From assembly GCF_026240635.1 (NCBI RefSeq), contig NZ_CP110848.1, positions 2,995,741 through 3,059,740 on the forward strand: a stretch of 64,000 nucleotides of DNA, given 5' to 3'. The first letter of the stretch is position 1. Each line of letters opens with the position of its first letter. A program made the translations under genes and the position numbers. The notes under the pieces are model-generated. The model was given only the letters and a program-made list of their open reading frames with translations, did not search any database and was not told the DNA's origin. Source of the DNA: Trichothermofontia sichuanensis B231. GTDB taxonomy: Bacteria; Cyanobacteriota; Cyanobacteriia; B231. Shown here piece after piece: positions 8,852 to 58,044 of the stretch.

Positions 8852-8923
8852 CAAATAAACGATCGGAAACGCTGAGTTTATGGTGGGGGCGCTACGCACC
8901 CTCACCATAAACTCAGGAGAGCC
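8852..8923. repeat. Truncated copy of the 112-bp MITE
   Basis: It carries AAATAAACGATCGGAAACGCTGAG, in part, followed by the long hairpin GAGTTTATGGTGGGGGCGCT / CACCCTCACCATAAACTC and the inverted end GGAGAGCC. This corresponds to the hairpin half of the intact copies at 39549-39660. The other half and any target duplication are gone. It lies in the 378-bp gap between glgX and the GT2 gene. Confidence 0.75.
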
Positions 8924-9915: not shown

Positions 9916-10020
9916 TATAGTCATTGCAATTGAGACTGAAACAGCCCCCTCACTCCCAACCCCTCTCCTACAGGGGAAGAGAGGGGCTTAGACATCTCTT
10001 TCTAATCTTAAATAACTATA
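9916..10020. repeat. Intergenic repeat, family B (TATAGTCATT ends)
   Basis: The left end TATAGTCATTGCAATTGAG is followed by ACTGAAACAGCCCCCTCAC and a CCCTCTCCTACAGGGG hairpin. The right end ATCTTAAATAACTATA is inverted relative to the left. It is MITE-like, about 105 bp, between the GT2 stop and treS. Confidence 0.75.
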
Positions 10021-15445: not shown

Positions 15446-15548
15446 TATAGTCATTGCCATTTAGGCTGAAACAGCCCCCTCACCCCCAACCCCTCTCCCA
15501 CAGGGAGAGAGGAGCTTAGACATCTCTTTCTAATCTGAAATAACTATA
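15446..15548. repeat. Intergenic repeat, family B
   Basis: TATAGTCATTGCCATTTAG at the left and CTGAAATAACTATA at the right frame a CCCCTCTCCCACAGGGAGAG core. The element is nearly identical in design to the copy at 9916-10020. It lies in the 306-bp gap between malQ and the recombinase-like gene and ends just before the latter's stop codon. Confidence 0.78.
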
Positions 15549-25109: not shown

Positions 25110-25214
25110 TATAGTCATTGCAATTTAGGTTGAAACACTACCCTCACCCCCAGCCCTCTCCCAGAGCGGGAGAGGGCAGTGAAAAACTGTATCGTTCTTA
25201 TTTGGATTGACCAT
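25110..25214. repeat. Intergenic repeat, family B (second right-end type)
   Basis: The left end is TATAGTCATTGCAATTTAG and the core CCCTCTCCCAGAGCGGGAG. The right end TATTTGGATTGACCATA differs from the copies at 9916 and 15446 but equals those at 32344 and 39775. It lies just upstream of the GNAT start. Confidence 0.78.
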
Positions 25215-25327
25215 AAAATCCATTAAAGAAATCCATAGGGATTGGATGACTATCTTCAACGTGGGTTAACTGTTCCTCCATCACCCAAGGCGGTGAATTG
25301 CAACCCCCAAATCTTGGCACGCAATGC

Positions 25328-32303: not shown

Positions 32304-32343
32304 ATTCGGGTGCTGGCATTGGGAGGGCAGATGGCTTCCCAGC

Positions 32344-32450
32344 TATAGTCATTGCCATTTAGGCTGAAACAGCCCCCTCACCCCCAGCCCCTCTCCCAGA
32401 GCGAGAGAGGGCAGTGAAAAACTGTATCGTTCTTATTTGGATTGACCATA
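32344..32450. repeat. Intergenic repeat, family B, next to a broken gene
   Basis: TATAGTCATTGCCATTTAG at the left, core CCCTCTCCCAGAGCGAGAG, right end TATTTGGATTGACCATA. It is nearly identical to the inverse of the copy at 39775-39881. Its right edge abuts the coding remnant that starts at 32451, which lacks a proper N-terminus. Confidence 0.82.
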
Positions 32451-32904
32451 AGCCTGGAAGCCTCTTTAAGTTGGCTTGGAAAGATGACGAAGGTAATGCC
32501 AGCAAACTGCAGCAAGGAGATCTAATATTGCTTAGGCAAGGTGGTTATGTTACGCACCTTGTGGAAGTACTCGATTACAAGCCGGAGCGTGAAAGGTGGC
32601 AAGGTGATTTCAATATCTATCGAAAGTATTTGGGGCTCTTCTGAGTTTATGGTGGGGGCGCTACGCGCCCCCACCATAAACTCAGCATTTGCGATCGTTT
32701 ATTTGTAGCTGCTGATACTGCTTACCCCAAAATCCCAGAAGAACCGTATTTGGTTACCCAGTTAGGCTTCAGGGTGGCGACGTGATGTTTCTGGAAACAA
32801 TGCCCACTTTTCAGCAAAACTGGCAAAATCAGGGCAGTTTGCCCGCATTTCAAGAGCGTGTTCGGGCTATGCTCACTCTACCTGAGAGGAGCGATAATAG
32901 ATAG
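32451..32904 (+). pseudogene. Remnant of a small-domain gene split by a MITE
   Basis: Two coding pieces flank the MITE at 32634-32745. The first reads GNASKLQQGDLILLRQGG ... THLVEVLDYKPE ... GDFNIYR. The second, in another frame, reads VFGYPVRLQGGDVMFLE ... ERVRAML and ends at TAG 32902-32904. They look like halves of one cyanobacterial protein with a small beta-rich (EVE/PUA-like?) domain; that family call is from memory. The stop codon that ends the first piece is the TGA inside the MITE end GGCTCTTCTGAG. Removing the MITE and one copy of the 8-bp duplication still leaves the halves out of frame, so other deletions exist. The N-terminus is also lost, at the family B repeat. Confidence 0.6.
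32634..32745. mobile_element. 112-bp MITE, copy 1, with 8-bp target duplication GTATTTGG
   Basis: The inverted ends are GGCTCTTCTGAG at the left and the complement of GGTTCTTCTGGG at the right. The left half is a long hairpin GAGTTTATGGTGGGGGCGCT / GCGCCCCCACCATAAACTC. The flanks 32626-32633 and 32746-32753 are both GTATTTGG. The element encodes nothing. The GGCTCTT ends and 8-bp duplication recall the ISL3 family, but no such transposase is in the window. Confidence 0.88.
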
Positions 32905-33419: not shown

Positions 33420-33536
33420 CAGCACGGCATAACAACCCCAATGCACCCGACCGCCGAAAGTCTGTCTGTAAGTGTTCGAGGTTGCTTGCGGCGGGTGATT
33501 GGGAACGTTGGCCGATCAGACCGGCATTTTTTGTAC

Positions 33537-33684
33537 CCGTTTCACCGCCAGTGGGGGGCATGATGATCAATTCTCCTCGTGCCGATCGCTCTAGTCGCAG
33601 GTCACGATTATGACGACAGATTTCCTCGAACTGCTCGTCGGTCAGTTCTAAAGTGGGTTGGAGGGCGATCGCTAAGGTAGTCAT
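33537..33684 (-). pseudogene. Duplicated 5' fragment of the Uma2 nuclease gene
   Basis: It translates to the same first 50 residues as the intact gene at 33731-34327 (MTTLAIALQPTLELTDEQ ... IIMPPTGGETG) with only a few silent base changes. The homology stops at 33537 and the frame runs on into unrelated sequence. No catalytic residues are included. It is a recent partial tandem duplication lying just downstream of the full copy on the same strand. Confidence 0.8.
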
Positions 33685-33730: not shown

Positions 33731-34327
33731 TTATTCCGATTCTAGCGAGCTAGTGAGAATGCCGCTCAAATCCAGACTAAAACCTGGCAGCAGGTTTTCC
33801 CCCGACAGGGTTGCCGGATTGATTAATAGTTCAGGATCTTGCTGGGCACGGTAGATTTCTACTGTTCGAGTTTGCGGATCAATTAACCACCCCAGTTGCA
33901 GGCCATTGTCTTGATACTCGCACATCTTGGCCCGGACATCTTCTAACTCATCAGTAGGGGAACGCAGTTCGATCGCAAAATCCGGGCATAGGGGAATAAA
34001 CTTTTCCCGTTGTTGAGGCGTCAGGGCTTGCCAGCGATCGCGCCTCACCCAAGCCGCATCCGGCGCACGAATCGCCCCATTGGGAAGCTTAAACCCGGTT
34101 GAAGAATCAAAGGCTTCGCCTAATCCAGTTTGCTCGTTCCAAAGGCACAGCCGAGTACCCAGCTTGAGGTTCCGTCGTCCCGTTTCTCCACCAGTGGGGG
34201 GCATAATAATCAATTCTCCTCGCGCCGATCGCTCTAGTCGCAGATCACGATTATGCCGACAGATTTCCTCGAACTGCTCGTCGGTCAGTTCTAAAGTGGG
34301 TTGGAGGGCGATCGCGAGGGTTGTCAT
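33731..34327 (-). CDS. Uma2-family (DUF820) restriction-endonuclease-like protein
   Basis: This 198-residue protein carries the DUF820/Uma2 fold. It has FEEICRHNRDLRLERSARGEL and IMPPTGGETG at the N-terminus, then AIRAPDAAWVRRDRW (Asp) and FAIELRSPTDELEDVRAKMCEY (Glu) as the PD-(D/E)xK-like core, with YQDNGLQLGWLIDP following. These genes are strongly amplified in cyanobacteria and presumed nucleases, but their biological role is unknown. The length is normal. A 5' fragment duplicate lies 47 bp downstream. Confidence 0.88.
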   Translation of the reverse strand: MTTLAIALQPTLELTDEQFEEICRHNRDLRLERSARGELIIMPPTGGETGRRNLKLGTRLCLWNEQTGLGEAFDSSTGFKLPNGAIRAPDAAWVRRDRWQALTPQQREKFIPLCPDFAIELRSPTDELEDVRAKMCEYQDNGLQLGWLIDPQTRTVEIYRAQQDPELLINPATLSGENLLPGFSLDLSGILTSSLESE

Positions 34328-39526: not shown

Positions 39527-39548
39527 ATATTTGCAGCTTGATATTTAT

Positions 39549-39660
39549 GGTTCTTCTGGGATTTTGGGGTAAGCAGTATCAGCAGCTACAAATAAACGAT
39601 CGCAAATGCTGAGTTTATGGTGGGGGCGCTACGCGCCCCCACCATAAACTCAGAAGAGCC
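39549..39660. mobile_element. 112-bp MITE, copy 2, with 8-bp target duplication ATATTTAT
   Basis: The left end is GGTTCTTCTGGG and the right end the complement of GGCTCTTCTGAG. The element is inverted relative to copy 1, with the same length and hairpin. The flanks 39541-39548 and 39661-39668 are both ATATTTAT. It sits between clpC and the bidirectional terminator. Confidence 0.9.
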
Positions 39661-39731
39661 ATATTTATAGTCTTTGATTAGTCTAGCCTGACAACCCCTG
39701 TCAGCACTAATTCCACACCCTGCTGAAAAAA

Positions 39732-39771: not shown

Positions 39772-39774
39772 GTT

Positions 39775-39881
39775 TATAGTCAATCCAAATAAGAACGATA
39801 CAGTTTTTCACTCCCCTCTCCCGCTCTGGGAGAGGGGCTGGGGGTGAGGGGGCTGTTTCAGCCTAAATGGCAATGACCATA
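39775..39881. repeat. Intergenic repeat, family B (inverse orientation)
   Basis: The left end TATAGTCAATCCAAATAAG is followed by core CCCTCTCCCGCTCTGGGAG and the right end GGCAATGACCATA. It is the near-exact inverse complement of the copy at 32344-32450. Confidence 0.82.
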
Positions 39882-39975
39882 GTTTTAGCGCCAATTTTTA
39901 GCACCAATACCAAGGCAGCGATCGCCCTTACCCCTTGCTCGGCACAAAGTAGGGGGATCGTTCGGTCTCATATCC

Positions 39976-48515: not shown

Positions 48516-48627
48516 GGCTCTCCTGAGTTTATGGTGGGGGCGCGTAGCGCCCTCACCATAAACTCAGGGTTTCCGAGCGTTTATTTGGAGTTGCTGATAC
48601 TGTTTACCCTAAAATCCCAGAAGAGTC
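48516..48627. mobile_element. 112-bp MITE, copy 3
   Basis: GGCTCTCCTGAG at the left, hairpin GAGTTTATGGTGGGGGCGCG / CGCCCTCACCATAAACTC, and the right end AAAATCCCAGAAGAGTC. The length is the same 112 bp as the other two copies. The flanks are T-rich (GTTTTTTT / AGTTTTTT), so the target duplication is not clean. It lies in the gap 48386-48994, which otherwise holds two weak overlapping short frames (48690-48818, 48715-48915) that I do not trust. Confidence 0.82.
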
Positions 48628-50422: not shown

Positions 50423-50889
50423 GCGCAGTCTTTACCATAATTAAGCCTAGGGAATGCAGACCGACAGCAGCAGCCTGTACTGTTTAGTATAACGACCTCT
50501 ACCCATCGGTGCAGGGTGTGGGCAGTACGATTCAGCGATCCTACACCCATAACGCGTGTACTCCTAGTAATACCTAGGCAACGGCGATCGCCCGAGCGTG
50601 CTGCACAGCTCTAGCTCTCTTGTATCAGCTCCATCCATATAGCTTCACCTGAAGTTTGTCAGTTAGGCGTTGTAATCGCAACCGTTACAGCCCTGCTTTA
50701 TCGGCGACACTGGGCCTACCATCGCTTAGTGACTAACCTAACTTGTATGCCAGCCAACTTCGTAGCCGAATCGCTTGCCCCCAATCCACGCGCGCTTCTA
50801 CCGCGATCGCTACTTGGACAGTAGTTTCACGGCTCTTCTGAGTTGATAGTGGGGGTGTGTAGCACCCCCAGCATATAGCCTTTCCCGAT
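50423..50889. other. Gene-free stretch with a degenerate MITE half
   Basis: Nothing coding is visible. 50831-50878 (GGCTCTTCTGAGTTGATAGT, then GGGGGTGTGTAGCACCCCC) is a degraded copy of the hairpin half of the 112-bp MITE. The left edge of the IS630 element follows. Confidence 0.6.
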
Positions 50890-57923: not shown

Positions 57924-58044
57924 TATGGTCAATCCCAATAAGAACGATACAGTTTTTAATTCCCCTCTTTTAATTCCCCTCTCCCGCTCTGGGAGAGGGG
58001 CTGGGGGTGAGGGGGCTGTTTCAACCTAAATGGCAATAACTATA
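57924..58044. repeat. Intergenic repeat, family B, with internal duplication, abutting a second copy
   Basis: TATGGTCAATCCCAATAAG at the left, core CCCTCTCCCGCTCTGGGAG, right end GGCAATAACTATA. TTTTAATTCCCCTC is duplicated inside. Immediately to its left, 57835-57925 is the end of another copy (GGGGGCTGTTTCAGCC, TTGCAACGACTATA) which shares the TATA boundary. Confidence 0.72.

What the first reader, a model, noticed from the sequence alone, without database searches (positions are those of the whole stretch)
32626..32753. A 112-bp MITE family with 8-bp target duplications, three full copies in this window
Copies at 32634-32745, 39549-39660 and 48516-48627 are all exactly 112 bp, share ends GGCTCTTCTGAG / GGTTCTTCTGGG, and consist half of one long perfect hairpin. 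Two copies have perfect 8-bp direct repeats (GTATTTGG, ATATTTAT); the third has only an imperfect T-rich one. Two degraded halves lie at 8852 and 50831. GGCTCTT ends with 8-bp duplications recall the ISL3 family, but no such transposase is here. Basis: the repeats are seen; the IS family is inferred.
Basis: partly seen in the sequence, partly recalled or inferred. Interest (0 to 1): 0.6.

Follow-up and report, generated by a model that had tools for sequence, protein, structure and literature searches.

The report
Hairpin MITE mobilised by ISL3 transposase
A 112-base parasitic DNA element with no genes of its own has spread to about 100 places in this cyanobacterium's chromosome; its ends and 8-base scars match the ISL3 family of jumping genes, and the only ISL3 gene found on the chromosome is now broken, so the family is an ordinary but unusually clear case of a known kind.

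Summary
The own chromosome (4.44 Mb, one contig) carries 99 copies matching the 112-bp element, plus at least one 115-bp copy, and 129 hairpin cores in all. 76 of the 99 have a perfect 8-bp target duplication; 0 of 9,702 non-self flank pairs match. Two near-clonal subfamilies (45 and 29 copies identical outside the 3-nt loop) show recent bursts. The ISL3 reading is supported. Full-length ISL3 elements in other cyanobacteria (about 1.25 kb) have the same kind of ends, GGCTCTTCTGGG/AG...TGGTG, and three have exact 8-bp duplications. The MITE's long end resembles the IS left end; its hairpin end resembles the IS right inverted repeat. The own chromosome holds one ISL3 copy, truncated and carrying a MITE inserted with duplication TGACTTAT, so no intact helper was found. 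A sister 112-bp MITE, 76-78% identical, lives in another cyanobacterial family. Extras: the hairpin loop is inverted in many otherwise identical copies and arm changes are compensated, as template switching predicts; A/B mosaic copies lack target duplications, pointing to recombination between copies. An ISL3-linked MITE with GGCTCTTCG ends and 8-bp repeats is published for Microcystis, so this is a new member of a known kind.

The parts
32634..32745 (+). MITE copy 1, subfamily A (loop TAC), 112 bp
   Evidence: (27 copies 100% identical genome-wide)
32626..32633 (.). 8-bp target duplication GTATTTGG, left
32746..32753 (.). 8-bp target duplication GTATTTGG, right
32641..32661 (+). hairpin 5' arm (21 nt); with GGCTCTT before it, this is the hairpin-side terminal inverted repeat
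32665..32685 (+). hairpin 3' arm: inverted copy of the terminal repeat lacking its outer 7 nt; 3-nt loop TAC at 32662-32664
32686..32745 (+). long end; its reverse complement GGTTCTTCTGGGATTTTGGGGTAAGCAGTAT resembles the left end of ISL3 elements
   Evidence: comparison by eye of the ends printed
39549..39660 (-). MITE copy 2, subfamily A with loop inverted (GTA read in element orientation)
39541..39548 (.). 8-bp target duplication ATATTTAT, left
39661..39668 (.). 8-bp target duplication ATATTTAT, right
48516..48627 (+). MITE copy 3, older diverged copy; flanks GTTTTTTT / AGTTTTTT (6 of 8)
8852..8923 (-). truncated copy: hairpin end plus part of the middle, long end missing
50831..50880 (+). 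decayed left half with imperfect hairpin

Best explanation
A non-autonomous ISL3-family element (MITE). It keeps the recognisable ends of a ~1.25-kb ISL3 insertion sequence: its long end corresponds to about 35-45 bp of the IS left end, and its other end corresponds to the IS right inverted repeat, duplicated in inverted orientation to form a hairpin with 21-bp arms. An ISL3 transposase acting in trans moved it (inferred), leaving 8-bp duplications (shown), mostly in AT-rich intergenic DNA (shown as a distribution; selection may contribute). It amplified in at least two bursts, A and B (inferred from near-identical copies). The autonomous element has since been lost or broken on this chromosome (shown), so the copies are probably immobile now unless a plasmid supplies transposase (inferred). 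Copies later recombined with one another, giving mosaics without target duplications (inferred from association). Template switching at the palindrome most likely keeps the arms matched and inverts the loop (inferred from pattern).
For: 99 copies with 76 perfect 8-bp duplications. Autonomous ISL3 elements with the same kind of ends: G088 1,247 bp with duplication GACTCTAC on the printed strand; Filamentous cyanobacterium Phorm 6 (L154) 1,248 bp, GAGTTTGG; Lyngbya sp. (L155) 1,248 bp, CACAGCAG. In G007 a sister 112-bp MITE has perfect 8-bp duplications at four of eight copies, in a genome with an ISL3 element whose 387-aa transposase is intact and scores 327 bits to NF033550. Own ISL3 remnant with left end GGCTCTTCTGGGTTTTTGGTGTAAA and a MITE inside its transposase gene, duplication TGACTTAT. 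Only one ISL3 remnant genome-wide. Empty sites restore open frames across e.g. a 226-aa Uma2-like gene (name by eye) and a 337-aa gene. Mosaics: 6/6 clear A/B recombinants lack duplications against 11/85 pure copies, p = 1.9e-5; counting every non-pure copy, 9/14, p = 1.1e-4.
Against: No transposition was observed and no intact helper exists in the held assembly. There is no close relative with empty sites. The IS right-end correspondence covers only about 21 nt. The own ISL3 remnant's left end differs from the MITE long end at several positions, so it need not be the exact helper.
Confidence: 0.93

Rival explanations
1. The element is moved by a different resident transposase that also makes 8-bp duplications, such as the multicopy IS1-type element in this genome.
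For: IS1-type copies are identical and multicopy (8 weak hits of NF033550), and one shows an 8-bp duplication ATAACCCT (L177).
Against: Its ends are GAGAGTTTCAAGTAA, unlike GGCTCTTCTG. ISL3 elements elsewhere have both the ends and the duplication size.
Confidence: 0.03
2. The hairpin is a REP-like or structured-RNA repeat kept by host selection, and the flanking repeats are incidental.
For: Very stable fold (-56 kcal/mol, z = -8.7), compensated arm changes, strong avoidance of coding frames (14/76 in ORFs of at least 150 aa against 59% of random sites).
Against: Perfect 8-bp duplications at 76/99 sites, fixed ends, burst-like identical copies, insertions inside genes and inside a transposase gene. 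No Rfam match above threshold; only sub-threshold eukaryotic microRNA models. Loop inversions with compensated arms are an expected product of template switching without selection (PMC8604942, PMC8794818).
Confidence: 0.04
3. A sub-question: copies without duplications arose by one-ended or duplication-free insertion rather than by recombination between copies.
For: No reciprocal flank pairs were found among the 22 copies with two or more mismatches.
Against: Clear A/B mosaics are confined to copies without duplication. Deletion between direct copies removes the reciprocal product, so absence of pairs is expected.
Confidence: 0.2

Closest known systems
187-nt ISL3-linked MITE of Microcystis aeruginosa PCC 7806 (PMC11448079)
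   Same: Cyanobacterial MITE; terminal repeats starting GGCTCTTCG shared with a ~1.2-kb ISL3 element; 8-nt direct repeats; tens of identical copies; folds into a stem-loop; mostly intergenic.
   Different: 187 nt against 112; no subterminal 21-bp perfect hairpin described in the passages read; Microcystis genomes still carry ISL3 transposases with matching ends, whereas this chromosome has only a truncated one.
Nezha MITE of cyanobacteria (Zhou et al. 2008, cited in PMC10969869)
   Same: Active cyanobacterial MITE family; from memory also with 8-bp duplications.
   Different: The primary paper is not held, so its sequence and IS family were not compared here.
Autonomous ISL3 elements of cyanobacteria (L152, L154, L155)
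   Same: Terminal repeats and 8-bp duplications.
   Different: 1,247-1,248 bp with a transposase gene; the right ends printed show no terminal hairpin.
Loop inversion and arm homogenisation at short inverted repeats by template switching (PMC8604942; RNA hairpins: PMC8794818)
   Same: Inverted loops in otherwise identical copies and compensated arm changes.
   Different: Described in yeast genes and RNA hairpins; here seen on a transposable element with many near-clonal copies.

Membership tests
ISL3 family, non-autonomous derivative | Terminal inverted repeats beginning GGCTCTTC/GGTTCTTC | tested here: met
ISL3 family, non-autonomous derivative | 8-bp target duplication | tested here: met
   76/99 perfect, 0/9,702 non-self pairs; also in autonomous relatives
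ISL3 family, non-autonomous derivative | Ends shared with an autonomous ISL3 element | tested here: met
   Own remnant L031 left end and IS ends in G088, L154, L155
ISL3 family, non-autonomous derivative | Mobilised by ISL3 transposase in an assay | not testable with these tools
   On the chromosome only one truncated ISL3 gene was found; a live helper in the same cell is not required of a MITE relic, and this strain's plasmids are not held.
MITE | Short, non-coding, multicopy, terminal inverted repeats, fixed-size target duplications | tested here: met
REP/RAYT-type palindromic repeat | No target duplication on insertion (from general knowledge) | tested here: not met
IS1-type derivative | IS1-type terminal repeats as in the resident IS1-like element | tested here: not met
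   resident IS1-like ends GAGAGTTTCAAG

The most novel reading that the evidence does not exclude
The perfect hairpin at one end is a working part of the transposition signal (an inverted second copy of the end bound by the transposase, giving the MITE an advantage over the IS that it outlived), which is why two cyanobacterial families share the same 112-bp hairpin architecture while the other half has diverged.
Probability: 0.15. Interest if true: 0.45.

Novelty: new member of a known kind. Interest (0 to 1): 0.3.

Why it matters
The element is ordinary in kind, but about 100 near-clonal copies in one complete chromosome make a good natural experiment. They let one read target choice, recombination between short repeats (copies lacking duplications), and inversion of palindrome centres. 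They also show a MITE family left on a chromosome whose only recognisable helper is dead and was itself hit by the MITE.

Tried and rejected
Plasmid collection: no MITE match. Viral contigs: none. Genome-contig scan by transposase: relatives only, own species left out and not named. Reciprocal flank pairs, which would show inversions: none convincing. Weak extra NF033550 hits looked like possible helpers but are an 805-bp IS1-type element with other ends. Hairpins in G088 and G075 that hit by BLAST: the G088 ones share only the GGGGGCGC-NNN-GCGCCCCC core in other repeats, not the MITE ends. The split reading frame of the own ISL3 remnant was first taken as decay; relatives are split at the same A-run or open through it, so the frame split alone does not show that it is dead, but its missing 3' half does.

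Full report
Observation. The window is G000:C1:2995741-3059740 of a single 4,436,989-bp contig. A hairpin pattern finds 129 places, reversed control 0. A near-full pattern finds 99 copies (46 + and 53 -), control 0. In the 99 copies read with their flanks, 76 have a perfect 8-bp duplication, one has one mismatch, and two have a 7-bp duplication (L106, L125). Among non-self left/right flanks, no perfect match occurs in 9,702 pairs. The 99 were found with a fixed-length pattern, so 'all 112 bp' is partly by construction. The gap-tolerant search gave 39 copies of 112 bp and one of 115 bp among 40 scored, and the 115-bp copy has an intact duplication (TTAAATTC).

Subfamilies. With the loop masked, 45 copies are identical (A) and 29 are identical (B); A and B differ at seven sites outside the loop. 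Within one substitution of A there are 54 copies with nine substitutions in all. This indicates recent amplification (inference).

Origin. PF01610 and NF033550 find one ISL3 gene on the chromosome, at about 3638855-3639562, and its DNA has no second copy. It begins with GGCTCTTCTGGGTTTTTGGTGTAAATG and lacks its 3' half. A MITE-A copy sits in the remnant with duplication TGACTTAT. Because the duplicated target runs across the point where similarity to intact transposase genes stops, the MITE appears to have inserted after the truncation, so some other transposase source was then active (inference). Directly upstream lies the hairpin half of another MITE copy abutting the IS left end.

Autonomous relatives. 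Seven ISL3 loci in other cyanobacteria show both recognisable ends; five of the seven are 1,247 or 1,248 bp. Three have exact 8-bp duplications: G088 (L152), Phorm 6 (L154) and Lyngbya (L155). Left ends read GGCTCTTCTGGGTTTGCGGTGTAAAGTGTATAAT and similar; the reverse-complemented MITE long end is GGTTCTTCTGGGATTTTGGGGTAAGCAGTATCA. Right ends read GGCTCTTCTGGGTTGATGGTGATAAG and similar; the MITE hairpin end is GGCTCTTCTGAGTTTATGGTGGGGG. These correspondences were read from the printed ends, not scored. G007, in another family of the class, has eight related 112-bp MITEs (76-78% identity for the best full-length matches), four with perfect duplications, and an ISL3 element with an open 387-aa transposase. 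In 390 genomes of the class, beyond the own genome, only G007 has the full element.

Where it lands. Empty-site reconstruction puts 14 of 76 copies in an open frame of at least 150 aa, against 59% of random window sites, p about 1e-12. Of the ten longest interrupted frames, seven are hit within the last few codons. Duplicated targets are AT-rich, 55-75% per position against 45.5% in the window. Choice by the transposase and removal by selection cannot be separated here.

Recombination. Six clear A/B mosaics all lack duplications, against 11 of 85 pure copies (p = 1.9e-5). Because 'clear mosaic' was defined after seeing the data, the broader test on all 14 non-pure copies is also given: 9/14 lack duplications, p = 1.1e-4. 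No reciprocal pairs were found, which fits deletions between direct copies better than inversions.

Palindrome behaviour. The loop is TAC in 27 and GTA in 18 otherwise identical A copies, and 23 against 6 in B. G007 also has TCA and TGA, which are reverse complements. Arm changes are compensated in L145 (own) and in four G007 copies. With 14 rows and shared ancestry the covariation count is modest evidence. Loop inversion and arm homogenisation are the described products of polymerase template switching at short inverted repeats (PMC8604942), so no new mechanism is needed. The number of independent flips is unknown: as few as one per subfamily would do.

Known work. A 187-nt MITE of Microcystis with GGCTCTTCG ends, 8-nt repeats and a matching ISL3 element is published (PMC11448079). 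The present family is therefore a new member of a known kind. What is less usual is the copy number without a live helper on the chromosome, and the one-sided perfect hairpin shared by two cyanobacterial families.

Limits.

Noticed in passing
window 25110-25217, 32343-32451, 39774-39882, 57924-58044 (also 9916-10020, 15446-15548): A second short repeat family of about 105-120 bp with ends TATAGTCATTGC... / ...TGACCATA, starting and ending in TA; looks like an IS630/Tc1-type MITE. Two of its copies lie within 200 bp of the 112-bp MITE copies.
   Followed up: no
L031, L152, L150, L062, L063, L067, L154, L155, L153 (element nt about 470-483): In nine of nine ISL3 elements an A-run of 6-9 sits at the same place in the transposase gene; in most the frame is split there into two overlapping ORFs, in G007 (A9) it is open throughout. 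Suggests expression by slippage or programmed frameshifting in this ISL3 subgroup.
   Followed up: partly
L175-L177 (805-bp element at 1368-2172): Multicopy, identical IS1-type element with ends GAGAGTTTCAAG and two overlapping ORFs; one copy has duplication ATAACCCT.
   Followed up: partly
L048, L051 (G088); L050 1400-1450 (G007): The core GGGGCGC-NNN-GCGCCCC recurs in unrelated palindromic repeats of cyanobacteria with different outer arms.
   Followed up: no
window 33536-33684 and 34179-34327: A 149-nt direct repeat, 93% identical, covering the start regions of two neighbouring - strand ORFs.
   Followed up: no
L015, L108, L013, L144, L020, L090, L011: MITE insertions within the last few codons of genes (for example a peroxiredoxin-like and an argininosuccinate-lyase-like gene, named by eye), which change the C-terminal residues or supply a new stop.
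   Followed up: partly
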